DNA of 58,891 nucleotides from Elusimicrobiota bacterium (GTDB lineage: Bacteria > Elusimicrobiota > Elusimicrobia > UBA1565 > UBA9628): contig JACRDP010000030.1 in NCBI GenBank assembly GCA_016212855.1, forward strand, positions 1 through 58,891. Reading direction: 5' to 3'. Position numbers and translations under genes: made by a program. Under the pieces are notes generated by a model. It was not told the DNA's origin and made no database searches. It saw only the letters and a list, made by a program, of their open reading frames with translations. Shown here in pieces: positions 23,559 through 35,287 of the stretch. Within the stretch, counting starts at the first letter, position 1. The number at the start of each line of letters is the position of its first letter.

Positions 23559-24221
23559 TTATTTCTTGTTCTGCTGCATCAACTTCTGGACTTCGGGGTT
23601 GTCGATTCCGCCGGGGATATTTTTGAGCATGTCCTTCATGTCCCCGCCGCCCTTGCCCGCCTGCGGATCGGCGACGCCCGTCATGCCCTGGCCTCCGGTC
23701 GGCTTGGGCGATTTCTGCGTAAAATTATTGCTGATGCTCTTCGTGCCCTGCAGCTTGGGCATGGTGAAGGACTTCTGGCCTCCCTTCTTGGCGGTGGCCT
23801 TGAGCTCGGGCGCGGGCGCGGGCGCCGGCGCGGCGGGCGCCACGGTCGGCGTCGAGGCCTTGGGCGCTTCGGCGGGCTTGTCCTGATAGTAGGAGTTGCT
23901 GCCCTTGACCATGTCGAGCGACGACCCTCCGCCCACCGGCGTCATACCGGCCTGGCCGGCGACGGGCAAGGACGACTGACCCGCGGGCACGGCGACCGCC
24001 GAATTGATCGTCACCGTCTGGCTGACGTTGACCTTGGCTTCGCCGCCCTCGCGGCGGTCGAACATCACCGAGGCGTTGGGCACCCGGGCGGCCTTGGACT
24101 CGCCCATTTTGATGTATACCACCCCTAAGAGGGGGAGCAGCAAGGAGGCGGCTCCGCCGGCGAGGAGCAGGACGGTACGCTTCTTGCGTCCTTCCTGCAC
24201 CTCCTGCTCGGGCGTGTCCAT
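23559..24221 (-). CDS. Membrane-anchored low-complexity protein, unknown function
   Basis: 220 aa. A single N-terminal TM segment (about 16-38, TVLLLAGGAASLLLPLLGVVYI) anchors a probably disordered extracytoplasmic part rich in Ala/Pro/Gly/Lys. It ends in a short helical patch (DMKDMLKNIPGGIDNPEVQKLMQQ). No recognised domain. Convergent with the sensor kinase and divergent from the riboswitch operon, so a role in the motor-like machine is only a guess. Confidence 0.65.
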   Translation of the reverse strand: MDTPEQEVQEGRKKRTVLLLAGGAASLLLPLLGVVYIKMGESKAARVPNASVMFDRREGGEAKVNVSQTVTINSAVAVPAGQSSLPVAGQAGMTPVGGGSSLDMVKGSNSYYQDKPAEAPKASTPTVAPAAPAPAPAPELKATAKKGGQKSFTMPKLQGTKSISNNFTQKSPKPTGGQGMTGVADPQAGKGGGDMKDMLKNIPGGIDNPEVQKLMQQNKK

Positions 24222-24298: not shown

Positions 24299-24326
24299 TT
24301 GACAAAGGCAACAATTCCGTTACACT
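24299..24326 (+). promoter_or_regulatory. Promoter of the riboswitch-controlled operon
   Basis: TTGACA (24299-24304), 16-nt spacer, TACACT (24321-24326). Predicted start near 24333, leaving a leader of about 175-210 nt that holds the aptamer. One of the few genes here with a long leader. Confidence 0.7.
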
Positions 24327-24420
24327 GGTCGGGTAGCATCCTGTTTCGCGCTTCCGGACCGTTTTTGGATCGGGGGGTTGGTGATCCAGCGGGTGGTCCG
24401 GTGCCCGTAGGCGCCCTACA

Positions 24421-24500
24421 GGCGATAACGGCAAACCCGGCGTAAGCCGGGGGCGCAAAGCCATGACTCCCGGTCGTTTGGGGAGCGTCAGGCTACCGAA
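24421..24500 (+). promoter_or_regulatory. Cyclic-di-GMP-I (GEMM-I) riboswitch aptamer
   Basis: The conserved core is present in order: CGGCAAACC, P2 hairpin CCCGGC-GTAA-GCCGGG with a GNRA tetraloop, CGCAAAGCC (ending at 24462), P3 (GACTCCC...GGGAGCGTC, 24465-24489) as tetraloop receptor arm, and GGCTACCG (24491-24498) closing P1. This matches the GEMM-I consensus. A 5-bp hairpin AGGGG/CCCCT (24526-24540) lies between the aptamer and GTG 24541 and contains an SD-like AGGGG, a plausible translational switch. Ligand is probably c-di-GMP; the cAMP-GMP variant is not excluded. Confidence 0.85.
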
Positions 24501-24540
24501 TGAATAGATGCCCGCTATAATTGCGAGGGGCTTGACCCCT

Positions 24541-26121
24541 GTGCGCTGCGTGCGCGCGTCGGTGCTTGCACAGACCTTGGCGCGCGCTTTCGCTTTTATG
24601 GGCCTCGCGACCTCCGCCTTCGCGCAGGCCGGCGGCACCCCTGGCGCCTTCCTGCAGTACGGCGTCGGCGGCCGCGCACTCGCGATGGGCGGCGCCTACT
24701 ACGCGATCTCGGACGACGCGAGCGCCGCCTACTGGAACCCGGCCGGCCTGTCCCAGCTCCAGCGCAAAGAGTTCACCACGATGCAGGCGACCTTGTTCCA
24801 GCAGACCAAGCTGACCTATTTCAGCATGGCGTATCCGACGAAGAGCGGCTCCACCTTCGCGCTGAGCATGACCCAGCTCGCCAACTCCGGTTTCGAGAAG
24901 GTGGACGTGGTGCTCAACCCCGCGACCAACGAGCCGCAGACGATCACCTCCGGCGGCTCGTTCGCCGATCAGCAGCAGGCCATGGGCCTGTCCTGGGGCA
25001 AGGGCGTGACCGAGACCGTCAGCTTCGGCATGGGCGTCAAGCAGGTGACGCGCAAGCTCGGCGGTTCCTCCGACAACTTCAAAACTCTCGACCTCGGCGC
25101 GATGAAGACGATGGGCGCCGCCTACCGCCTCGGCTTCGGCATGCAGAACGTCTTCGCGATGCGCAGCGGCGACACGGACGACAAGCTGCCCGTCGTCATC
25201 AAGCTCGGCAACTCCTTGCGTCTGTTCAAGGAACGCCTGACGCTCGCCGCCGATATCAACAAGGTCCTCAACGGCGACACCGACATGCGCTTCGGCGGCG
25301 AGTATTGGGTCTCGCGCTGGTTCGCGTTCCGGTTCGGCTTGCTCGGCCTGCCCAAGATTCAGGAGACCGACTTCGGCTTCGGCTTGAACTTCAAGAGTTT
25401 CGCCCTCGACGTCGCCCAGGGCATCCACGATCTGGGCTCCTCCACGCGCTTTTCGGTTACCTTCCGCTTCGGCCAGTCGCGCAGCGACCGCTCGACGGTG
25501 CAGGTCAAGAACTTCATCAAGCAGGGCATGGAGGCCTTCCAGGAGGGCAACTTCGCGCTCGCCGCGCAGAAGTTCAACCAGGCCCAGGACGCCGCGCCCG
25601 GCAACAAGCAGGTCGCCACGATGATCGCGCGCCTCAATAACGTGACGGCCTTCGTGCCCCAGGCGAGCGGCGGCGAAGAGTACGTGACCTTCATCCGCCG
25701 GGGTGCTATCGCCTACGTGGACGGCCGCGACCTGAAGGTCTCGGTCAACGCCCTGCGCTACGCCTTCAACAAGAACTCTCGCGACGAGAAGCTTCTCGGC
25801 CTGCTGAACATGGTCGAACGCGAGGCCGGCGCCGCGGATCCGACGCGCCGCATGGAAGGCCCCGAGCAGTTCACCTTCATCGACCAGAAGGTCTTCGACG
25901 CCCGCCAGTCCATCTACGACGGCAAGTACGACGCCGCGGTGCGCCGCGCGCAGGATGTGCTCGACCTCGAGCCGAACAACGTGACCGCGCTCGAGATCAT
26001 GGGCTCCGCCTTCTTCCTGATGGAGCAGAAGGACAAGGCGGTCGCGGTGTGGCGCCGCGTCCTGGAGATCGACCCGAACAATCGCTCGGTCCGGGAGTTC
26101 CTCCAGTCGATCCGCCAGTAA
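24541..26121 (+). CDS. PorV/PorQ-type outer-membrane barrel with C-terminal TPRs
   Basis: About 526 aa. The signal peptide (...TLARAFAFMGLATSAFA) precedes a FadL/PorV-like barrel that opens with the family signature GVGGRALAMGGAYYAISDDASAAYWNPAGLSQL. After the barrel (to about residue 315) come helical TPR-like repeats (AFQEGNFALAAQKFNQAQ..., IYDGKYDAAVRRAQDVLDLEPNN, AVWRRVLEIDPNN), probably periplasmic. The frame also has ATG 24508; I prefer GTG 24541 because it follows an AGGGG and gives a normal signal peptide. First gene after the c-di-GMP riboswitch and upstream of the FliG/MotAB genes, so it may be their outer-membrane component. Confidence 0.8.
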   Translation: MRCVRASVLAQTLARAFAFMGLATSAFAQAGGTPGAFLQYGVGGRALAMGGAYYAISDDASAAYWNPAGLSQLQRKEFTTMQATLFQQTKLTYFSMAYPTKSGSTFALSMTQLANSGFEKVDVVLNPATNEPQTITSGGSFADQQQAMGLSWGKGVTETVSFGMGVKQVTRKLGGSSDNFKTLDLGAMKTMGAAYRLGFGMQNVFAMRSGDTDDKLPVVIKLGNSLRLFKERLTLAADINKVLNGDTDMRFGGEYWVSRWFAFRFGLLGLPKIQETDFGFGLNFKSFALDVAQGIHDLGSSTRFSVTFRFGQSRSDRSTVQVKNFIKQGMEAFQEGNFALAAQKFNQAQDAAPGNKQVATMIARLNNVTAFVPQASGGEEYVTFIRRGAIAYVDGRDLKVSVNALRYAFNKNSRDEKLLGLLNMVEREAGAADPTRRMEGPEQFTFIDQKVFDARQSIYDGKYDAAVRRAQDVLDLEPNNVTALEIMGSAFFLMEQKDKAVAVWRRVLEIDPNNRSVREFLQSIRQ

Positions 26122-26141
26122 AAAGATGAGGATAAATCGTC

Positions 26142-26170
26142 TTGAATCCGTAACACGGCCCCCTTACACT
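26142..26170 (+). promoter_or_regulatory. Internal promoter before the FliF/FliG-like gene
   Basis: TTGAAT (26142-26147), 17-nt spacer, TACACT (26165-26170), then 9 nt to ATG 26180. It would allow expression independent of the riboswitch. Confidence 0.6.
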
Positions 26171-26179
26171 TCTTGGCGT

Positions 26180-28222
26180 ATGCGCATCGTCGCGTTCGCG
26201 GTACTGCTCGCATGGTCGGCGGCCCTCCGGGCCGGGGCCGGCGTCGTGTCGCCGGACCTCGGCTTGCTCGAACAGCAGAACCACATCAAGGCGGACTCGG
26301 AGCTGAAGATCCAGCGCGACGTCCTCGATACGATTCTCGGTAAAGGTAAGGCGTCCCCATTTGTCGACGTGGAGATGGAGGTCAAGCTCGAGAGCGAGGA
26401 GTCCCAGCGCTCGGGCATGGGCGTGGCGGAAAAATACAAAGAGAAGGCGCCCGGTCCCAAGGGCGGCATGCAGACGACCTTCGTGCTGCCCGGCATTCCG
26501 AAGCCGAAGACGATCACGCAGGGTCCGGAGACTCCCGACCGCCCCGAGGCGTCGCAGGCTCAGCAGGCGCAGCAGATGAAGGGCGTGCAGGAGGAGCGGT
26601 TCTCCATCAAGCCCACGTTTAAGCGCTTCCAGGTGACCGTGATCCACGACGACACGGTGCTCGATCCGCTGAAGGACAAGAAGCGGCTCGATCTCGTGCG
26701 CGAGCGCATCGTGGACGCGATGTCGCAGTACAAGCTGGCGCCCGACGCGGTGGCGTTCCGCCCGACGAAGTTCGACAAGCCGCCGCTCGTGGATTGGCGC
26801 GAGGATTTCAAGAAACCGTCCGTCTATCTGCCCCTGCTTTATGCTCTGCTCCTGCTGCTGTTCCTCTCGTTCCTGTTCGGGCCGCTGCGCCGCTTTTTCT
26901 CGCAGTACGTCGCCGCGCTGCGCGAGGCGAAGAAGGGCGAGTACGAGGTGCTCAACAAGGCCGAGGACGAGAAGGACGGCGAGGACGAAGGCGACGATTC
27001 GTTGGAAGAGCTCACGAAAGGCGAGCTCGATATCATGCTGGGTCGCAAGCAGCCGGAGCCCCCTCCGGCGCCCCCGGAGGAGGATGAGGACGCCATGAAG
27101 AAGTTCGAGCCGTTCACGTACATTACCGAAGAAAACTTTAAGCGTCTGGCGAACCTCTTTCTCGTCCGCCAGGACGAGCCGTGGCTCGTGACCGTCGTGC
27201 TCAGCTATCTCAAGCCCGAGATCGCGCGCGCGACCTTGACCTTGCTGCCCGTCGAGCTCCAGGCGAAGATCGCGATCGAGGCCCTCAAGATCCGCCAGGT
27301 GACCCGCGAGCAGCTCATGGCGATCGACGCCGACATCAAAGAGTCCGTGGACTTCGTCGTCGGCGGCATGGAGCGCCTGACCCAGATGCTCGACGAGGCG
27401 GACACGCTCACGCGCGCGAACATCCTCGAGTACCTCAAGAACGAGAAGCCCGACGTGTACCGGCGCGTTCGCAAGTTCATCCTGACGTTCGAGGACGTCA
27501 CGACCTTCCCCGACCGCGATATGCAGACGATCGTGCGCGAGCTCAAGACCGAGGCGATGGCCAAGGCCCTGCAGGGCGCGGCCCCCGACGTGGTCAACAA
27601 GTTCCTCTCGAACATGTCTGCGGGCGCGGCGTCTTTGCTCAAGGAATCCATCGAGTACGCGGCGGGCCTCACGCCCACGCAGATCGAGGAGGAGCGCTCG
27701 AAGATCATGGACGTCGTGAAGGTTCTCGAGAAAGAGGGCAAGGTGAACGTCCGGCAGAGCCGCGGCGACGCCTTCTCCGGCTTTCATGAGGAAGTGGCCG
27801 GCGGCGGCGGCGACAAGTACGCGGCTCGCACGCGCGCGGGCGAGCAGGCGGTCGCGAATCTCCTCGGCGCGGGCGGAGGTTCGGCGACCGGAGCTCCCGC
27901 GACCGGAGCTCCCGCGACCCCGTCCATGCCCGCTCCCGTTCAGGCCTCGGTGTCGCCGGCGCAGGCCGAGGCGGCCAAGCCCTATCTCCAGGCCGGCATC
28001 CAGTATCACGACGCCGGACGCTTTCAGGAGGCGGCGCAGTACCTTGAGTACGCGCTGTCCCAGGACGGAACTCAATGGCAGGGGCGGCAGTATCTGGCCA
28101 ACTGCTACGTGCAGTTGGGCCGCCAGAACGAGGCGATCGCGCAGTTCGAGCAAGTCCTGCTCTCCAACCCCGATCCGGGGCTGAGGCAGTGGGTGGACGG
28201 AATGAAGGCGCAGGCGATTTGA
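26180..28222 (+). CDS. FliF/FliG-like inner-membrane fusion protein with C-terminal TPR
   Basis: 680 aa. A signal peptide (MRIVAFAVLLAWSAALRAGA) is followed by a periplasmic segment like the FliF C-terminal ring domain (LDTILGKGKASPFVDVEMEVKLE; FKRFQVTVIHDD...LVRERIVDAM). One TM segment lies at about 215-237, then an acidic linker. Residues about 313-533 form a FliG-like middle and C-terminal region: LSYLKPEIARATLTLLP, TRANILEYLKNEKPDVYRRVRKFILTFED, DRDMQTIVREL, ALQGAAPDVVNKFLSNMS. A Gly/Ala/Pro linker and a TPR pair (about 603-675) end it. No flagellar structural genes are nearby, so it is probably the base of a motor-derived envelope complex with MotAB downstream. Confidence 0.75.
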   Translation: MRIVAFAVLLAWSAALRAGAGVVSPDLGLLEQQNHIKADSELKIQRDVLDTILGKGKASPFVDVEMEVKLESEESQRSGMGVAEKYKEKAPGPKGGMQTTFVLPGIPKPKTITQGPETPDRPEASQAQQAQQMKGVQEERFSIKPTFKRFQVTVIHDDTVLDPLKDKKRLDLVRERIVDAMSQYKLAPDAVAFRPTKFDKPPLVDWREDFKKPSVYLPLLYALLLLLFLSFLFGPLRRFFSQYVAALREAKKGEYEVLNKAEDEKDGEDEGDDSLEELTKGELDIMLGRKQPEPPPAPPEEDEDAMKKFEPFTYITEENFKRLANLFLVRQDEPWLVTVVLSYLKPEIARATLTLLPVELQAKIAIEALKIRQVTREQLMAIDADIKESVDFVVGGMERLTQMLDEADTLTRANILEYLKNEKPDVYRRVRKFILTFEDVTTFPDRDMQTIVRELKTEAMAKALQGAAPDVVNKFLSNMSAGAASLLKESIEYAAGLTPTQIEEERSKIMDVVKVLEKEGKVNVRQSRGDAFSGFHEEVAGGGGDKYAARTRAGEQAVANLLGAGGGSATGAPATGAPATPSMPAPVQASVSPAQAEAAKPYLQAGIQYHDAGRFQEAAQYLEYALSQDGTQWQGRQYLANCYVQLGRQNEAIAQFEQVLLSNPDPGLRQWVDGMKAQAI

Positions 28223-28245
28223 AGGCTTCTTAAGGAGACACCACG

Positions 28246-30516
28246 ATGGGTATCGACGATAAGTTCCCGCCGCCGCCGCCCCTGCCCCCGGGCAAGGGGG
28301 GCGCGCCCATGCCGCCGCCGCTGCCGTCTTCGGCGGGCAAACCTCCGGCGCCTCCGCCTCTTCCTTCTATGCCCGCCCGCTCGGGAGGGCTTCCCATGCC
28401 GCCTCTGCCGTCGTTCGGCGGGCCGGTTCCGACGTCTTTACCGCCCGTGCCTCCTTCTTTCGGCGCTGGTACGCCGTCTTTACCCTCTATGCCTCCGGAC
28501 CGGAGCAGGGAGCGCGAGGACAAGACCGAGCGCATGAAGAGCGATTTCGAAAGCAAGCTTCAGGAGCTGGAGAAGAAGCTGAGCGAGGAGCGGGAGAAGT
28601 CCCTGCTTCTGCAATTCAAGAGCCAGGAGGAAACGGTCACCGCCGCCAAGGTGGAGGTGTCTCTTAAGGAACTTCAAGAGCGACTCCGCCGCGACCGCCG
28701 CGACCAGGAGGCCGAGGAGACCCGCGGCAAGCTCGAGCGCAAGGCGGCTGAGCTCGAGACGCGGCTCGCGCAGGAGCGCGAGACGTGGGTGTCCACGCTC
28801 AAGGGCCAGCTCGCCTCCCGCGAGTCGCAGGATAAGGAGGTCGAGGCTCATTTCGCCGTGCGGCTGCAGGAGATGGAGCGGCGCTGGCTCGAAGAGAAGG
28901 CGCAGTGGCAGAAGGCCGCGCTCGCCAAGGACGACGAGGTGCGGACCTTGCGCGCCCTGGCCGAGAAGCTGCGCGGCGCCGACACCGAGCTCACCAAGGC
29001 CGTCGGCGAGCGCAAGCTGCTCGACGAGCGGCTCACCGAGGTTCTCCAGGAGCGCGCCGAAGCCGTCGCGCGCCTGCAGTCGGCCGCCGAACGCGAAAAG
29101 GAGGCGATCCAGCTGCGCGCCGATCTTCAGCTCTCGCGCCAGCAGGCCGCGCTGATCCAGGAACGCCTGGAGCGCGATCTCGCCGGCCTGCGTCACAGCT
29201 CGCGCGAGCGCGAGGAGCGCCTGATGGCCGACCAGGAGCGCCTGCAGCGCGACCTGGCGTCGGTCAAACAGAGGCTCGAAGCGGAGCACGACGCCGATCT
29301 GCGCCGCGCGAAGGCTGAGCACGACGCGGATCTTGTCAAACACGTCGAGGCCGCGGACAAAGCCGTCGCCGAGCTGCAGCGCCTGCGCTCGGTCGCCGGG
29401 GCGCTCGAGCGCCAGGGCGCCTCCGCGCGCGCGCAGCTCGACGAGATGCGCCGAGCGGCCGTCTCCTGGGAAAAGACCCAAGAGCGTTATAAGGCCGAGT
29501 TCGTCGTCCTCCAGCGCAAGTGGGTCGAGCGCGAGAAAGAGGTCCGCGCCGAGGCCGTGCAGTCCTCGCTTCAGATGGTCGAGGCGGAGAAGACGCGCCT
29601 GCGCATCCAGGCTCAGGACGAGCTCAATACCCGCGCGGCGAAGATCGCCGACCAGCTCCGGCTCGAGAACGAGTCCGAGCAGAAGCGCATGGAGACGCGC
29701 CTGCGCTCCGAACTCGAGCGCGAGGTCGCCGAACGCCGCTCGGCCATGCAGGCCGAGCTCGACGGCGCGCGCGTGCAGGGCGAGGCCGAGCTTGGCCGCC
29801 TGCGCCGCGAGCTTCAGCAGAAGGATGCCGCGTGGGGCGAGCGGCTTCTCGCCAAGGAGTCGGAGCTGATCGGCCAGCGTTCGCGCGCCGACGAGCTCGC
29901 GGGCCGGGTGTCGCGCGAGGAGGAGGCTCACGCCGCCGCGCTGCGCGACCGGCTCGAACTCGAGAAGCAGCTCGAGGGGCTGCGCGAGCAGCTCGGCGCC
30001 CAGCAGTCGTCGCTGCGCGCCTTCCAGGACCGGGCGGCCGCGGCGGACGCGGAGAAGTCACGGCTCGAGCACGAGAAGACCGAGCTCGAACGCTTGGCCA
30101 GCGCCCAGGCGGCGCAGGTGTCGAGCACGCAGGAGGCTCTCGAGGCGACCCGCCTTCAGCTCGCCCGCGAGACGCAGTCCGGCAAGATATTACAGAACGC
30201 GCGCGAGCAGGCCGAGAAGGCGCTCGTCTCGCAGAAGGCCGAGGTGGCGCGCGCCGTCCAGGCCAACAAGAACGAGCTCGAGCGCGTGTACCGCGCCGAA
30301 AAGGACCGCGCCGACGCCGCGATCGCCGCGGCGCAGGCCCAGGCCGACGCGGCGCTGCAGGCCGAGCGCGAGCGCCTGGAGGCCGAGAAGCAAAACGCCG
30401 TGGACGCGGCCCGGGCCGAGGCCGCCGCGCTGGCGCAGAAGCTCGAGGAGTGCCGTAGCCAGTCCCTGATGGACAAACTCTTCAAGAAGGAGGGCGAAGG
30501 TGATAAGCCTGCATAA
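28246..30516 (+). CDS. Proline-rich head, long coiled-coil protein
   Basis: 756 aa. Residues 1-85 are repeated Pro/Gly-Met/Leu-Pro motifs (PPPPPLPPG, PMPPPLP, PPPLPSMP), a flexible adhesive head. Residues about 88-745 are an almost unbroken highly charged coiled coil. The end is SLMDKLFKKEGEG. There is no signal peptide, so it is cytoplasmic, probably a filament or scaffold bound to the FliG-like protein. Polar coiled-coil proteins of this general kind accompany bacterial gliding motors, but homology cannot be judged from coiled coil alone. 23 nt after the FliF/FliG-like gene; overlaps flbD by 17 nt. Confidence 0.75.
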   Translation: MGIDDKFPPPPPLPPGKGGAPMPPPLPSSAGKPPAPPPLPSMPARSGGLPMPPLPSFGGPVPTSLPPVPPSFGAGTPSLPSMPPDRSREREDKTERMKSDFESKLQELEKKLSEEREKSLLLQFKSQEETVTAAKVEVSLKELQERLRRDRRDQEAEETRGKLERKAAELETRLAQERETWVSTLKGQLASRESQDKEVEAHFAVRLQEMERRWLEEKAQWQKAALAKDDEVRTLRALAEKLRGADTELTKAVGERKLLDERLTEVLQERAEAVARLQSAAEREKEAIQLRADLQLSRQQAALIQERLERDLAGLRHSSREREERLMADQERLQRDLASVKQRLEAEHDADLRRAKAEHDADLVKHVEAADKAVAELQRLRSVAGALERQGASARAQLDEMRRAAVSWEKTQERYKAEFVVLQRKWVEREKEVRAEAVQSSLQMVEAEKTRLRIQAQDELNTRAAKIADQLRLENESEQKRMETRLRSELEREVAERRSAMQAELDGARVQGEAELGRLRRELQQKDAAWGERLLAKESELIGQRSRADELAGRVSREEEAHAAALRDRLELEKQLEGLREQLGAQQSSLRAFQDRAAAADAEKSRLEHEKTELERLASAQAAQVSSTQEALEATRLQLARETQSGKILQNAREQAEKALVSQKAEVARAVQANKNELERVYRAEKDRADAAIAAAQAQADAALQAERERLEAEKQNAVDAARAEAAALAQKLEECRSQSLMDKLFKKEGEGDKPA

Positions 30517-30730
30517 GCTCAACGGCATGGAGGTCGTCGTCAACGCCGAGCTCATCGAGACCCTCGAGCCCGGGCCCCAGACCGTCGTCCACCTCGCGAC
30601 CGGCAATAAGATTCCGGTGAGGGAGGGGGCTGACGTCATCATCGCGAAAGTGGTGGAATACAGGAAGGCCGTGAACGCGGCGGGAAAGCCGGTCAATCCG
30701 ATCGCGGGCTACGAAAGGCAGAAGAGCTAA
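30500..30730 (+). CDS. flbD: FlbD-family flagellar-associated protein
   Basis: 76 aa. It matches the small FlbD family: starts MISLHKLNGMEVVVNAELIETLEPGP and continues with a TVVHLATGNKIPVREGADVIIAKVVEYRK region. FlbD genes normally lie just before motAB, as here, supporting a flagellar-motor origin of this operon. GTG start at 30500, with SD AAGGAGG inside the coiled-coil gene's end. Confidence 0.8.
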   Translation: MISLHKLNGMEVVVNAELIETLEPGPQTVVHLATGNKIPVREGADVIIAKVVEYRKAVNAAGKPVNPIAGYERQKS

Positions 30731-30745
30731 GGAGCCGAATACTTC

Positions 30746-31570
30746 ATGGATATCGCAACGGTCGCGGGAATTTTCACCTTCGTCGGCCTGGCCGTCTTCA
30801 TGATCTTCCACAGCGAAGGCGTGGCCGGCTTCAAGCCGTTCATGAACATGGAGGCCGTGTTCATCGTCATGGGCGGCACCTTCTGCGCGACCTTGGTGAA
30901 CTATCCGTTGGCCCAGGTGATCGGCGTCGGCAAGATCATCCGCAAGACCTTGATGTCGCACGGCGGGGACGACACCTCGGAGATCGTCGTGACCTTCGTC
31001 AACCTCGCGCAGAAGGCCAAGAAGGAGGGCTTCCTCGCCCTGCAGAACGATCTCAAGAACATCAAGAACGACTTCCTGCGCCGCGGCGTCCAGCTCGTCG
31101 TCGACGGCGCCGACCACGAATTCATCCGCAACATGCTGGAGACCGAGATCGGCTTCATCCGGGAACGGCACAAGGGCGGCGCCGAGATTCTCAACGCGTT
31201 GGGCACCTATTCGCCCGCCTTCGGCATCATCGGCACCGTGCTCGGCATGATCATGATGCTGTCCTCGATCGAAGACGTGGCGCAGGTTCCGCGCCGCATG
31301 GCCCTCGCGTTGTCCGCCGCCTTCTACGGCCTGGGCTCGGGCTACCTGATCTTCCTGCCCATGGGCGGCAAACTGCGCGCGCGTTCGGAGGAGGAACTGC
31401 TGCTCAAGGAAATCATCATCCGCGGCGTGCTGCTGCTCCAGAGCGGCGCGACGCCGTCCGTCGTCGAGGCCAACCTCAAGGCTTATCTGGCGCCGTCTCA
31501 ACGCCTGATCGTCAAGACGCCCCCCGCGGCAGGGGCGCCGGGAGGGCCGGCCGCGCCGCCGGCCGCCTAA
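30746..31570 (+). CDS. motA: MotA stator protein
   Basis: 274-aa ion-channel stator subunit of the inner membrane. Four TM segments are visible: about 5-23, 31-50, and the conserved pair at about 150-205 (SPAFGIIGTVLGMIMMLSS and LALSAAFYGLGSGYLIFLP). A cytoplasmic loop between TM2 and TM3 includes VVDGADHEFIRNMLETEIGFIRERH. A Pro/Ala-rich tail follows. With MotB it converts proton or sodium flow into force, here probably on the FliG-like protein. SD GGAG before ATG 30746. Confidence 0.92.
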   Translation: MDIATVAGIFTFVGLAVFMIFHSEGVAGFKPFMNMEAVFIVMGGTFCATLVNYPLAQVIGVGKIIRKTLMSHGGDDTSEIVVTFVNLAQKAKKEGFLALQNDLKNIKNDFLRRGVQLVVDGADHEFIRNMLETEIGFIRERHKGGAEILNALGTYSPAFGIIGTVLGMIMMLSSIEDVAQVPRRMALALSAAFYGLGSGYLIFLPMGGKLRARSEEELLLKEIIIRGVLLLQSGATPSVVEANLKAYLAPSQRLIVKTPPAAGAPGGPAAPPAA

Positions 31571-31579
31571 CAGAACTCT

Positions 31580-32341
31580 ATGCCGATGCGCGCGCCGAAG
31601 GGCTTCATCGACGAGACCGACCCCAAGGTCGCGAAAGTCGGCCATCCCGCGCCCGCCTGGGTCGTCTGCTACGCCGACCTGATGACCGAGCTGGTCTGCT
31701 TCTTCGTCATTCTTTACGCCCTCTCCGCCGCTCTGAACAAGAACGTCCAGAACGCCGCGCAGCAGGTCAAGGAGATGATGGACAAGGGGCAGATGAAGGG
31801 CGAGGTCAAGATCGACAAGGAAGGCCTCAAGATTTCGATCGAGGAGCAGGGCGGCGCGTCGTTCTTCGGCGTGGGCGCGGCCGAACCGACGCCCGAGATC
31901 GACGGCAAGCTCGCCTTGCTCACGCCGGCGATCGCCAAACTCGCCGTCGATCATGAAATCCTCGTCGAGGGCCATACCGACGGCCAGGCCATTCACAACG
32001 ACTACTTCGACTCGAACTGGGAGTTGTCCACCGCCCGCGCGACGAGCGTTGCGCGCCTGCTTATCGAGAAGTACCGCATGCCCGCCGCCAATCTCGGCGC
32101 GGTCGGCTACGGCGGCAACCGCCCGATCGCCACGAACGACACGCCCGAGGGCCGCGCCAAGAACCGGCGCGTCGTCATTTTCGTCAAGAGCGGCACGATC
32201 CCCAAAAAGACCGACAAGGACGGAAGGGCGCTGCCCGAAGATAAACCCGGAGAAATCAAGCCCGCTGAAGCCCCGGCGCCTGCGCCCGCGGCGTCGAGGG
32301 AAAATCCCGAATCTCCGTCGGCGTCCCCGGCGGCCGAATGA
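31580..32341 (+). CDS. motB: MotB stator protein with OmpA-type peptidoglycan-binding domain
   Basis: 253 aa. One TM segment (about 27-47, WVVCYADLMTELVCFFVILYA) carries the ion-binding Asp (D33, in YADLMTEL). The periplasmic OmpA-like domain (about 110-215) has LVEGHTDGQ, NWELSTARA and NRRVVIFV, anchoring the stator to peptidoglycan. The tail is Pro/Ala-rich. Follows motA by 9 nt. Key residues are intact, so the ion channel should work. Confidence 0.92.
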   Translation: MPMRAPKGFIDETDPKVAKVGHPAPAWVVCYADLMTELVCFFVILYALSAALNKNVQNAAQQVKEMMDKGQMKGEVKIDKEGLKISIEEQGGASFFGVGAAEPTPEIDGKLALLTPAIAKLAVDHEILVEGHTDGQAIHNDYFDSNWELSTARATSVARLLIEKYRMPAANLGAVGYGGNRPIATNDTPEGRAKNRRVVIFVKSGTIPKKTDKDGRALPEDKPGEIKPAEAPAPAPAASRENPESPSASPAAE

Positions 32342-33063
32342 TAGAATATCCCATGCGACGCGCACTTCTCCTCGTCGGAGCGATCCTCGTTTCGGCCGCG
32401 TGCGGGCCCTCGAACAAGAACGTCGTCGTCGAGGACTTCGCCGAAGGCCGCATCGTCGACTTGTCCATCACCGAGAAGCTCACCGGCACCTCGGAGTTCC
32501 TGCTTTTCTCCACCTCGAAGAAGACCCAGTTCCTGGACGGCTACATTCAGGGCGTCATCACCGACTACCAGGACAACCCGGTGCAGGGCGTGGTCGTGCG
32601 CGCCGTCGCCAGCGGCGAGAACACGCTCGAGGAAGGCGAGGCCCGGCCGTCCGGCTTCGCGACGAGCTCCTTCGACCCGGGCGTCTCCGACACCAACGGC
32701 TTCTACCGCATCCGCTTCTCCCTGCCGATCCTCGGCAACAAGGTCGACATCCGCGGCCGCATGCTCTACAACCCCGGCTGGGAGCAGGAGCGCGACAACC
32801 TGGGCAAGTCGTACGAGCCGCAGACCAAGCAGAGCCAGTATCGCCTGTACTACGACCGCAAAAACGGCCGCATCATCTTCTCCGAAGGCGTGCGCAAGAC
32901 CGTGGTGTCGCCCGTGAATTCCAAGGGCGCGGCGAAGTCGCCGCCTCTGCCCGGCGCGGAGGCGCCCAAGCCCGTCGAGAAGTCCAAGCCCGCGGACGGG
33001 GCGCCTCCCGCCGCCGGCGCCGGCGCGGACGACCTCTTCAAGGGATTCGGTTTCGGACAGTGA
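32338..33063 (+). CDS. Lipoprotein with carboxypeptidase-regulatory-like (beta-sandwich) domain
   Basis: 241 aa. Type II signal peptide with lipobox LVSA-C. A transthyretin-like regulatory domain follows (YIQGVITDYQDNPVQGVVVRAVASG ... SDTNGFYRIRFSLP), then a Pro/Ala/Lys-rich tail ending FKGFGFGQ. ATG 32338 overlaps the motB stop (ATGA). A second ATG at 32353, 5 nt after TAGAAT, would give a shorter signal peptide and is also plausible. Likely an envelope component of the MotAB-associated complex, last of its genes. Confidence 0.75.
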   Translation: MIEYPMRRALLLVGAILVSAACGPSNKNVVVEDFAEGRIVDLSITEKLTGTSEFLLFSTSKKTQFLDGYIQGVITDYQDNPVQGVVVRAVASGENTLEEGEARPSGFATSSFDPGVSDTNGFYRIRFSLPILGNKVDIRGRMLYNPGWEQERDNLGKSYEPQTKQSQYRLYYDRKNGRIIFSEGVRKTVVSPVNSKGAAKSPPLPGAEAPKPVEKSKPADGAPPAAGAGADDLFKGFGFGQ

Positions 33064-34223
33064 CCGTCTACCTCGACCACAACGCGACCACCCCTGTTCG
33101 TCCCGAGGTCGTGGACGCCATGCTGCCTTGGTTGCGCGAGGGCTACGGCAATCCGAATTCCGTCTACTCTCTGGGCCAGCGCGCGCGCGGCGCGATCGAG
33201 CGCGCGCGAGAGCAGGTCGCGGCCTTGCTCGGCGCCTGCGACGCGTCCGAGATCGTATTCACCTCCGGCGGTTCCGAATCAGACGTGCTCGCGATCGCCG
33301 GCGGCGCCTGGCAGATCCACGACGAGACGAAGGGAAAGCGCCGCAAGGTCGTCACGACCAAGATCGAGCACGACGCCGTCCGCCTGCTCGCCGGCCAGCT
33401 GCGCCGCCGCGGTCTCGAGGTCCTCGAAGCGGGCTGCGGCGCGGACGGCGTGACCGACGTCGCCGCGTTCTCGGCCATGCTCGACGAGGCCACGGCCGTC
33501 GTCAGCGTCATGCACTCCAACAACGAGACCGGCGTCCTCCAGCCCGTCGCCGAGCTCGCCGCCTCCGCGCGCGCCGCGGGCGCGCTCGTCCATACGGACG
33601 CGGTGCAGTCGCTCGGCAAACTGAAGCTCGACGCCAAGGCCCTGGGCGTCGACCTGCTCGCGGTCTCCGGCCACAAGGTCAACGCGCCCAAAGGAGTCGG
33701 CGCGCTCTGGATCAAGCGCGGCGTCCGCCTCTCCCCCGTCGTCACCGGCCATCAGGAGAAGAACCGGCGCGGCGGCACCGAGAACACCGCGTCCATCGTC
33801 GGCTTCGGATTGGCCTGCGAACTCGCCGGCCGCGAGCTGTCCGCGGCCGCGTCCCACGCCTTGGCGTTGCGCAAAAAGATCGAGGCCGGGGCCCTGCGTG
33901 TTGTGGGCGCGCGTCTTAACGGTCATGCCGGACTGCGCCTGCCCAACACCGCGCACCTGAGCTTTCCCGGCGTCGACGGCCACCACCTTGTGGTCGCCCT
34001 CGACCTCGAAGGCATCTGTGTCTCGAGCGGCCCGGCCTGCTCCTCGGGCGCGTCCACGCCCTCGCACGTACTCACCGCGATGGGCGTCCCCGCGGAGCTC
34101 GCCACCGGCTCGATCCGCGTGTCGGTCGGCTGGGGCAGCACCGACGCCGACGTCGACCGCTTTCTCGCCGTCCTGCCGAAGGCGGTCGAGAAGCTCCGCG
34201 CCGCTGAAAAGGTGTCCGCGTGA
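33060..34223 (+). CDS. nifS: Cysteine desulfurase (NifS/IscS type)
   Basis: 387-aa PLP enzyme that takes sulfur from cysteine and supplies it to MnmA or Fe-S assembly. Motifs: YLDHNATTPVRPEV, HSNNETGVLQP, HTDAVQSLGK, PLP lysine K206 in SGHKVNAPKG, and persulfide Cys C327 in SSGPACSSGASTPSHVL (long loop, IscS/NifS class). GTG 33060 overlaps the lipoprotein stop (GTGA); its own stop overlaps the mnmA start. The mnmA partner indicates a role in tRNA 2-thiouridine synthesis. Confidence 0.93.
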   Translation: MTVYLDHNATTPVRPEVVDAMLPWLREGYGNPNSVYSLGQRARGAIERAREQVAALLGACDASEIVFTSGGSESDVLAIAGGAWQIHDETKGKRRKVVTTKIEHDAVRLLAGQLRRRGLEVLEAGCGADGVTDVAAFSAMLDEATAVVSVMHSNNETGVLQPVAELAASARAAGALVHTDAVQSLGKLKLDAKALGVDLLAVSGHKVNAPKGVGALWIKRGVRLSPVVTGHQEKNRRGGTENTASIVGFGLACELAGRELSAAASHALALRKKIEAGALRVVGARLNGHAGLRLPNTAHLSFPGVDGHHLVVALDLEGICVSSGPACSSGASTPSHVLTAMGVPAELATGSIRVSVGWGSTDADVDRFLAVLPKAVEKLRAAEKVSA

Positions 34224-35287
34224 AAAAGCGCGTTCTCGTCGCGATGTCCGGCGGCGTGGACTCCTCCGTCGCCGCCGCGATGGTGGCGGAGCGCGGCGAC
34301 GAGGCCGTGGGCGTGACGATGAAGCTTCTCGCCCGCGCCGAGACCGGCTTCGGCTGCTGCGGCTCGCCCGCCGACGTGGACGACGCCAAGCGCGTGGCCG
34401 AGAAGCTCCGCATCTCCCATTACGTTTCGGACATGGCCGAGATCTTCGAGTCGAAGGTCATCCGCCCCTATCTCGACGCGTACCTCGGCGGCACGACGCC
34501 CAATCCGTGCGTGGAGTGCAACCGCTCGCTGAAGTTCGGCCACCTGCTCGGCCTCGCCGCGGCCTGGGGCTGCGACGCGGTCGCGACGGGTCATTACGCG
34601 CGGGTCATCGGCGGCGTCCTGCACAAGTCGCTCGATCAGGCGAAGGACCAGAGCTATTTCCTGTACTCGCTCGACGCGACGGCGCGCGCGCGCGCCGACT
34701 TTCCGGTCGGGTCGCTGAGCAAGGACGCCGTCCGGGCCAAGGCCCGCGAACTCGGCCTCAAGACGGCGGACAAGCCCGAGAGCATGGAGACCTGCTTCGT
34801 GCCCGACCGCGACGTGCGCGGCTTCGTCGCCGCCCACGCCGACGCGTCCGCGCCGGGGCTGGCCTCGGGGCCGATCCGCGACCGGTCGGGACGCGTTCTC
34901 GGACAGCACACGGGACTCGCGTCCTACACGATTGGACAGCGCTCCGGTTTGGGGTTGTCGGGGCCGGAGCCGAGATATGTGGTGAGAATCGATGCCAAGG
35001 AAAACGCCGTCATCGTGGGCAGCACCGACGAGCTCCAAACGCGCGAGATCACCGTCGGGGCAATGACTTTGAACGGCGAACGGAATGGGGAAACCTTCCA
35101 GGCCGAAGTGCGAATCCGCCATCGCCATGTTCCGACGCCCTCGACGATTACGCTTCACGACGGCACGGCAACGATTACTTTTCATGAACCCCAGCGGGCG
35201 CCTGCCCCGGGACAAGCGGCGGTTTTCTACGACAACGAGGCTGTTATCGGTGGCGGAACGATCTTGCGCGCAGGAGGTGCCTCTTGA
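34220..35287 (+). CDS. mnmA: tRNA-specific 2-thiouridylase MnmA
   Basis: 355 aa. Inserts sulfur at U34 of tRNA-Lys/Glu/Gln wobble positions. P-loop AMSGGVDSS (about 8-16), catalytic C97 in NPCVECN and C192 in ETCFVPD, ATGHYAR and QAKDQSYFLY. The C-terminal beta-barrel is present (PEPRYVVRIDAKENAVIVG). GTG 34220 lies in the GTGA overlap with the desulfurase, a natural sulfur-relay pair. Confidence 0.95.
   Translation: MKKRVLVAMSGGVDSSVAAAMVAERGDEAVGVTMKLLARAETGFGCCGSPADVDDAKRVAEKLRISHYVSDMAEIFESKVIRPYLDAYLGGTTPNPCVECNRSLKFGHLLGLAAAWGCDAVATGHYARVIGGVLHKSLDQAKDQSYFLYSLDATARARADFPVGSLSKDAVRAKARELGLKTADKPESMETCFVPDRDVRGFVAAHADASAPGLASGPIRDRSGRVLGQHTGLASYTIGQRSGLGLSGPEPRYVVRIDAKENAVIVGSTDELQTREITVGAMTLNGERNGETFQAEVRIRHRHVPTPSTITLHDGTATITFHEPQRAPAPGQAAVFYDNEAVIGGGTILRAGGAS

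What the first reader, a model, noticed from the sequence alone, without database searches (positions are those of the whole stretch)
24299..33063. Flagellum-free MotAB/FliG-like envelope machine under a c-di-GMP-type riboswitch
One co-directional block holds a GEMM-I aptamer, a PorV-type outer-membrane barrel with TPRs, a membrane protein joining FliF-like and FliG-like regions, a proline-headed coiled-coil scaffold, FlbD, MotA, MotB (ion-binding Asp intact) and a lipoprotein. Nothing for rod, hook, filament or export is present. Together they span outer membrane, peptidoglycan, inner membrane and cytoplasm, as expected of a stator-driven machine for gliding, adhesin movement or secretion. 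A flagellar-motor origin is clear from FlbD-MotA-MotB; the rest is inferred from gene order and domains.
Basis: partly seen in the sequence, partly recalled or inferred. Interest (0 to 1): 0.9.

Follow-up and report, generated by a model that had tools for sequence, protein, structure and literature searches.

The report
Flagellar motor repurposed without a flagellum
These bacteria of the phylum Elusimicrobiota seem to lack flagella but keep the flagellum's ion-driven rotary motor, rebuilt with a one-piece rotor and linked by the same class of RNA switch to a giant (over 11,000-residue) surface protein, which suggests a motor that moves or exports surface adhesins rather than turning a propeller.

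The parts
24421..24501 (+). c-di-GMP-I-clan riboswitch aptamer (RF03167) in the leader of the operon
   Evidence: Rfam 67.2 bits, gathering 59; covariation over 72 distinct matches; upstream of PorV in 60 of 60 testable named loci
24508..26121 (+). PorV/PorQ-family outer-membrane barrel with C-terminal TPRs (start codon uncertain)
   Evidence: NF033709 3e-29, 102.6 bits over cut-off 90; TPR_2 9.3e-10
26126..28222 (+). natural FliF-FliG fusion: signal peptide, FliF RBM3-like ring domain, TM near residues 233-251, FliG middle and C-terminal domains (about 328-542), TPR (about 611-698)
28246..30516 (+). proline-headed coiled-coil protein, no TM by hydropathy, presumed cytoplasmic scaffold
   Evidence: no Pfam/NCBIfam hit; a homolog downstream in 48 of 48 testable loci
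30500..30730 (+). FlbD (PF06289), GTG start overlapping the coiled-coil gene
   Evidence: PF06289 6e-20
30746..31570 (+). MotA-type stator subunit
   Evidence: PF01618 6.2e-27; phmmer 6ysf MotA 7.8e-53
31580..32341 (+). MotB-type stator subunit, Asp33 and peptidoglycan-binding OmpA residues kept
32338..33063 (+). lipoprotein with a weak CarboxypepD_reg-like stretch
   Evidence: lipobox by a loose regular expression in 44 of 48 orthologs; PF13620 0.034
23559..24221 (-). divergent 220-aa proline-rich protein with an N-terminal hydrophobic stretch, conserved beside the operon in close relatives; role unknown
   Evidence: no Pfam hit; tblastn hits in named loci

Best explanation
It is a flagellum-independent, ion-driven rotary machine. 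SHOWN by sequence and structure comparison: a MotA/MotB stator with intact Asp and peptidoglycan-binding residues, encoded with a rotor in which a FliF RBM3-type ring domain, one TM helix and the FliG torque domain are one polypeptide; export gate, C-ring switch, rod and hook genes were searched and not found. SHOWN genetically: the motor operon and a giant protein with a T9SS-like C-terminal sorting domain are neighbours in much of the phylum and, in the window's genus where they are apart, each carries a c-di-GMP-I-class riboswitch. INFERRED: MotAB, anchored to peptidoglycan, turns or pushes a ring of the fusion protein through its FliG domain; the periplasmic ring passes the force, with the PorV-TPR barrel and lipoprotein, to giant T9SS-like adhesins at the outer membrane, which are moved (gliding, retraction) or driven out. 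A cyclic dinucleotide sets expression of both. Without FliM/FliN and without the R281-type residue of FliG, direction switching of the usual kind is unlikely.
For: Fusion domains. Flagellum missing: FlhA 1 of 198, FliMN_C over cut-off 1 of 198 (3 of 198 at E<=1e-3), Flg_bb_rod 1 of 62, the over-cut-off hits all in G032. Synteny in testable named loci: PorV 66/69, coiled coil 48/48, FlbD, MotA, MotB 42/48 each, lipoprotein 38/48. Riboswitch 60/60 where PorV has 900 bases upstream, 47 of these loci not used for the model. T9SS-like domain upstream 33/56, 26 of them within 500 bases; TIGR04183 matches 15/15 domains at E<=0.01. Same giant family linked or unlinked: own 11,353 aa and G110 14,428 aa, 37.5% over 6,857 columns; own and G189 65.7% throughout. 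Closed G198 (CP096137): two model matches, motor and giant, Rfam agrees. In G094 one site lies before a SprA-like gene. Rotor and stator trees share their main groups over 24 pairs, Mantel r 0.817, 0/2000 permutations. Interface: FliG D288 position Glu in 76/76, MotA R90 position Lys or Arg in 57/57.
Against: FliG R281 position is Gly in 72/76 and MotA E98 position Gln in 34/57, so half of the recalled E. coli charge contact is gone. Contact of MotA with the fusion was not modelled. No motility or localisation data. 23 of 56 loci, mostly relatives of the window, lack the sorting domain upstream. Riboswitch exceptions: no match before the motor in G170 and G006 (14 of 16 genomes with the main fusion have one); three named loci without a PorV hit, L125, L126, L136, have no aptamer match either. 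The model also finds sites away from both gene sets, ten in G053, which has no fusion match. SprA-like genes occur in 78 of 80 genomes, also where the fusion is missing, and not in G000. A few sequences sit differently in the two trees, and linked genes co-diverge without touching. G198 has only one FliG_C protein, so paralogous machines are not universal.
Confidence: 0.62

Rival explanations
1. Secretion motor: the MotAB/FliF-FliG machine stands in for the GldLM motor of T9SS and powers export of giant CTD proteins through the SprA-like translocon, with no surface movement.
For: PorV-family barrel in the operon, CTD giants next door, SprA-like genes in 78 of 80 genomes, one riboswitch before a SprA-like gene. 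GldM not found in 80 genomes, but no control rang.
Against: SprA-like and CTD matches also occur in genomes without a fusion match, for example G053 and G010, so the motor is not required for all such export.
Confidence: 0.22
2. An envelope energiser of the Tol/Ton kind: the motor pulls on or remodels the outer membrane or drives uptake, and the giant protein is only co-regulated.
For: PorV-TPR barrel and lipoprotein; a paralogous machine in the same genome sits beside a TonB-dependent receptor.
Against: That receptor belongs to the type-2 cluster, not to this operon; a T9SS-like domain is upstream in 33 of 56 loci.
Confidence: 0.1
3. A decaying flagellar remnant kept for minor functions.
For: All torque parts are flagellar relatives.
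Against: Operon order, riboswitch and key residues are conserved widely; a fused rotor and paralogous machines are elaboration, not decay.
Confidence: 0.03

Closest known systems
Bacterial flagellar motor (FliF, FliG, MotA/MotB)
   Same: FliF RBM3-type ring domain, FliG M and C domains, MotAB with ion-binding Asp and PG-binding domain, FlbD-family gene before motA
   Different: FliF and FliG parts are one protein with only one FliF ring domain, FliG_N only at E 0.12, added TPRs; no FlhA, FliM/FliN, rod or hook found; PorV barrel, lipoprotein and giant CTD protein instead
Type IX secretion / gliding machinery of Bacteroidota (GldLM, SprA, PorV, SprB)
   Same: ion-driven inner-membrane motor, PorV/PorQ-family barrel, SprA-like genes in the phylum, giant protein with T9SS type A-like C-terminal domain
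   Different: motor is MotAB with a FliG rotor; SprA-like hits lie below the family cut-off; PorK/N and PorU not tested, GldM test had no working control; phylum is Elusimicrobiota
Myxococcus Agl-Glt gliding machine (recalled)
   Same: MotAB-like motor and a cytoplasmic coiled-coil protein in a trans-envelope complex
   Different: no FliG or FliF there as recalled; Glt proteins not searched here
c-di-GMP-I riboswitches (RF01051, RF03167)
   Same: aptamers reach Rfam gathering scores before the motor (RF03167) and the giant (RF01051)
   Different: control a non-flagellar motor and a giant protein; ligand of the motor variant not tested

Membership tests
Bacterial flagellum | FliG torque domain | tested here: met
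Bacterial flagellum | FliF MS-ring protein | tested here: inconclusive
   one RBM3-like domain; no further FliF domain or first FliF TM recognised
Bacterial flagellum | MotA/MotB stator | tested here: met
Bacterial flagellum | type III export gate (FlhA) | tested here: not met
   own genome none; 1 of 198 phylum genomes, G032; controls rang in 4 of 14
Bacterial flagellum | C-ring FliM/FliN | tested here: not met
   none in G000; 1 of 198 over cut-off, G032; two more below cut-off
Bacterial flagellum | rod/hook proteins | tested here: not met
   PF00460 in 1 of 62, G032; none in G000 or closed G198
Bacterial flagellum | flagellin filament (fliC), ATPase fliI | not tested
   searches spent on other markers
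T9SS / Bacteroidota gliding | substrates with C-terminal sorting domain | tested here: met
   TIGR04183 matches 15 of 15 A4 domains at E<=0.01, best 1.2e-7; the one member printed in full is under the cut-off (19.8 of 23 bits); FlgD models match 15 of 15 too. A4 domain found in 74 of 80 genomes, 13 times in G000
T9SS / Bacteroidota gliding | SprA/Sov translocon | tested here: inconclusive
   five ORFs of relatives 3.7e-41 to 2.8e-51, 140-174 bits, cut-off 200; 78 of 80 genomes at E<=1e-3, none in G000
T9SS / Bacteroidota gliding | GldL/GldM motor | tested here: inconclusive
   TIGR03517 0 of 80, but no control genome rang; GldL not searched
T9SS / Bacteroidota gliding | PorV barrel | tested here: inconclusive
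   PorV/PorQ family model over cut-off (102.6 of 90) but the PorV equivalog far under it (22.3 of 250 bits)
T9SS / Bacteroidota gliding | PorK/N ring, PorU sortase | not tested
   no search run
c-di-GMP-I riboswitch | aptamer sequence and structure | tested here: met
c-di-GMP-I riboswitch | binds c-di-GMP | not testable with these tools
   needs in-line probing

The most novel reading that the evidence does not exclude
The flagellar rotor-stator pair exists in nature as a free-standing power unit: Elusimicrobiota use a fused FliF-FliG ring turned by MotAB to glide or haul giant T9SS-like adhesins of more than 10,000 residues over the cell surface, under cyclic-dinucleotide riboswitch control, and in many lineages have multiplied it into several specialised machines per cell.
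Probability: 0.5. Interest if true: 0.95.

Novelty: categorically new. Interest (0 to 1): 0.9.

Why it matters
As far as I know (recalled), every characterised FliG works in a flagellum. A widespread machine with FliG, a FliF ring domain and MotAB but no flagellum would show that the rotary motor is a separable module, bears on how flagella arose or were dismantled, gives a possible function to the huge proteins for which Elusimicrobiota are noted (PMC11573180, passages), and joins two motility worlds (flagellar motor, T9SS-type gliding). The direct tests are clear: tomography, a MotA-FliG co-structure, imaging of one giant protein.

Tried and rejected
Rejected: a flagellar regulon elsewhere in the genome (families FlhA, FliM/N, rod/hook only). 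Rejected: chance gene order. SprA-like presence as a marker of this motor: it is found in 78 of 80 genomes, also without a fusion match. GldM search silent everywhere including controls, so no conclusion. hhalign of the N-terminal domain with a wrongly chosen G032 ORF gave nothing; with a C-terminal piece of the G032 FliF only 26 columns, probability 28; the structure comparison settled it. Plain Foldseek against the PDB never got a slot; VIA-align rows are a second look at Foldseek's own list, not a search. A self-BLAST of the own giant printed no repeat pairs; not pursued. A strict DNA pattern found the aptamer in only 17 of 67 loci incl. the window; the covariance model replaced it. My NifS reference (part of 33063-34223) was out of frame (one search printed that it holds stops); its rows are dropped and used in no count. 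The fusion outside Elusimicrobiota could be looked for only with one pattern-based scan of the 84,980-species set, which kept the best 80 of 98 relatives; those with a phylum-level name are Elusimicrobia/Elusimicrobiota or Endomicrobia types, others are titled only 'bacterium'; other phyla are not excluded. Literature: listings showed no description of this operon; one search is of little use because 'FliG' as a word start also matches 'flight'; preprints and most subscription papers are not held. Residue numbers R90, E98, R281, D288, D289, K264, R297, P173, P222 are recalled E. coli numbering; two papers searched for some of them held none. That family f3 are gut types is my guess and is not used.
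Full report
WHERE AND WHAT. The window is contig C25 of an anonymous 2.5 Mb, 72.66% complete genome. Named records with fusion proteins up to 89% identical are titled Elusimicrobia or Elusimicrobiota bins, one of them a MAG deposited as a complete chromosome, CP096137, handled here as G198. The reported block is real. In order: aptamer RF03167 at 24421-24501; PorV/PorQ-family barrel with TPRs; FliF-FliG fusion; coiled coil; FlbD; MotA; MotB; lipoprotein. MotA is of the flagellar kind: best PDB relative 6ysf MotA, 7.8e-53; NCBIfam places it nearest MotA, MotP and PomA, below their cut-offs.

NO FLAGELLUM. FlhA was found in 1 of 198 phylum genomes, not in the window's. FliMN_C passed its cut-off in 1 of 198 (3 of 198 at E<=1e-3). 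Flg_bb_rod was found in 1 of 62 genomes, a set that included the window's and G198. The over-cut-off hits are all in G032, whose contig C2 holds the FlhA, FliM/N, rod and FliG matches; its only FliG_C match is an ordinary FliG of about 355 aa. fliC and fliI were not searched; in G198 only FliG_C (1 match) and rod proteins were tested. A published figure legend also notes absence of flagellar genes in Elusimicrobia (PMC7031533, passage). The fusion query matched 67 of 198 genomes at E<=1e-3, a count that includes paralogs, ordinary FliG and weak hits; 45 of 198 have a best match of 1e-40 or better by my count of the same list.

SYNTENY AND REGULATION. In 80 named loci, counting only those with enough flank, PorV precedes the fusion in 66 of 69, a coiled-coil homolog follows in 48 of 48, FlbD, MotA and MotB in 42 of 48 each, the lipoprotein in 38 of 48. 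The six without FlbD-MotA-MotB hits are L115, L127, L131, L132, L134, L135; in the last five the coiled coil lies 6 kb or more downstream, and two unnamed relatives of that kind have a 1,601- and a 2,103-aa ORF in between. A covariance model from 17 aptamers gave 74 matches at E<=0.01 in 99 sources, none in the paralog loci included. Covariation is strong (17 of 22 pairs with changes on both sides, 94.7% of cells paired), on an alignment fitted to that structure. An aptamer stands before PorV in 60 of 60 testable named loci, 47 of them not used for the model, and in 15 of the 16 unnamed loci L040-L055, many of them the same contigs. Exceptions: G170 (L053) and G006, so 14 of 16 genomes with the main fusion have a site before the motor; L125, L126 and L136 show neither PorV nor aptamer. 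Several loci carry two in tandem; in L132 Rfam calls one RF01051 and the other RF03167.

THE GIANT. Upstream of the aptamer in many clades lies a co-directional giant ORF, open at the edge of the fetched DNA in the first look, whose last 130 residues form a conserved domain. It matches the T9SS type A sorting domain TIGR04183 in 15 of 15 sequences at E<=0.01, best 1.2e-7; PorU, PorZ and FlgD models match as well. Such a domain lies upstream in 33 of 56 loci with at least 3 kb before PorV, within 500 bases in 26; in L133 and L134 the hit is a short stand-alone ORF, in L114 it is 7.1 kb away. Open frames around the domain reach 17,000-19,000 codons in some genomes, not always beside the motor. 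I read complete ORFs of 14,428 aa (G110, beside the motor), 11,262 aa (G189) and, in the window's own genome, 11,353 aa at C10:40860-74921 minus. In G198 the gene is broken into several frames, whether by sequencing error or decay I cannot tell. Own and G110 proteins are relatives (37.5% over 6,857 aligned columns), own and G189 are 65.7% identical throughout. Two scanned pieces of the own giant carry bacterial Ig-like domains. Elusimicrobiota are already noted for huge proteins, to which that study assigned no COG (PMC11573180, passages).

THE LINK. In the window's genus the giant is not next to the motor. Yet about 1.4-1.5 kb before its start, ahead of two small conserved reading frames, G000, G189 and G198 each have an aptamer, which Rfam calls RF01051. 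G198 has two matches to the model at E<=1e-3, motor operon and giant operon; as in every genome of that search only 150 first-look candidates were scored. G000 has a third, weaker one (C10:7314). In G110 the two aptamers flank the giant. In G094 one lies shortly before a SprA-like gene. The association is not exclusive: several genomes have further sites that I did not place, and G053 has ten sites and no fusion match. SprA-like ORFs of about 1,800 aa match TIGR04189 at 3.7e-41 to 2.8e-51, below its cut-off, and matches occur in 78 of 80 genomes, also without the fusion, but not in G000.

ROTOR MEETS STATOR. G000 and many other genomes hold further fusion-plus-MotAB clusters, in G000 one beside a TonB-dependent receptor and one beside histidine kinases. 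FastTree trees of 24 FliG parts and their MotA partners (no support values examined) recover the same four main groups, while four divergent sequences and some inner branches sit differently; Mantel r 0.817, 0 of 2000 permutations as high. One genome contributes several types, so species descent alone does not give this, but joint inheritance of linked genes would. In the main type the D288 position of FliG is Glu in 76 of 76 and the R90 position of MotA Lys or Arg in 57 of 57, whereas the R281 position is Gly in 72 of 76 and the E98 position Gln in 34, Glu in 22, Asp in 1 of 57; other types vary more. The P173 and P222 positions of MotA are Pro in 57 of 57. This fits a kept but altered torque interface and loss of the switch, in keeping with missing FliM/FliN; it is an inference.

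MECHANISM. I think most likely that MotAB, fixed to peptidoglycan by MotB, drives a ring of the fusion protein, and that this ring, through its periplasmic domain and the PorV-TPR and lipoprotein partners, moves giant T9SS-like adhesins at the surface. The nearest working model is Flavobacterium gliding, where GldLM powers both secretion and movement of the adhesin SprB (PMC8986121, abstract and passages). A recent survey of MotAB divides it into flagellar and other ion transporters (PMC12505986, abstract and outline); I did not place this MotA in its tree. Whether the output here is movement or export is open. Nothing here measures ion flow, rotation or motility.

Noticed in passing
G000 C14 (L036:9581-13188) and C30 (L037:8251-15388): Two further FliF-FliG fusion plus MotAB clusters in the same genome, one beside a TonB-dependent receptor and a CHAT-domain TPR protein, one beside two histidine kinases.
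   Followed up: partly
L132:7342-7719, also L119, L127, L131, L134, L051, L054, L055, L214: Tandem riboswitches before the motor operon, in L132 one canonical c-di-GMP-I and one GGC variant: a possible two-input switch.
   Followed up: partly
L253:1507-1580 (G094:C4:400787-400872): Riboswitch of the same class shortly before a SprA-like gene.
   Followed up: partly
L043:2475-4064 (minus): Caspase-fold Peptidase_C14 protein downstream of MotB, where other operons have the lipoprotein gene.
   Followed up: no
G053: Ten riboswitch matches in a genome of the same class without a fusion match; their genes were not examined.
   Followed up: no
G032:C2 about 95000-131000: The only genome of 198 with FlhA and over-cut-off FliM/N; it has rod/hook matches and an ordinary FliG but no fusion operon.
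   Followed up: partly
G121, G037, G012, G006, G043: Open frames of 17,000-19,000 codons around the T9SS-like domain, among the longest bacterial frames I know of (recalled).
   Followed up: partly
window 23559-24221 (minus): Divergent 220-aa proline-rich protein conserved beside the operon in close relatives, unknown role.
   Followed up: no
window 34220-35287: A gene I labelled MnmA (by recall) follows the operon in many named loci across families, an old but probably unrelated neighbour.
   Followed up: no
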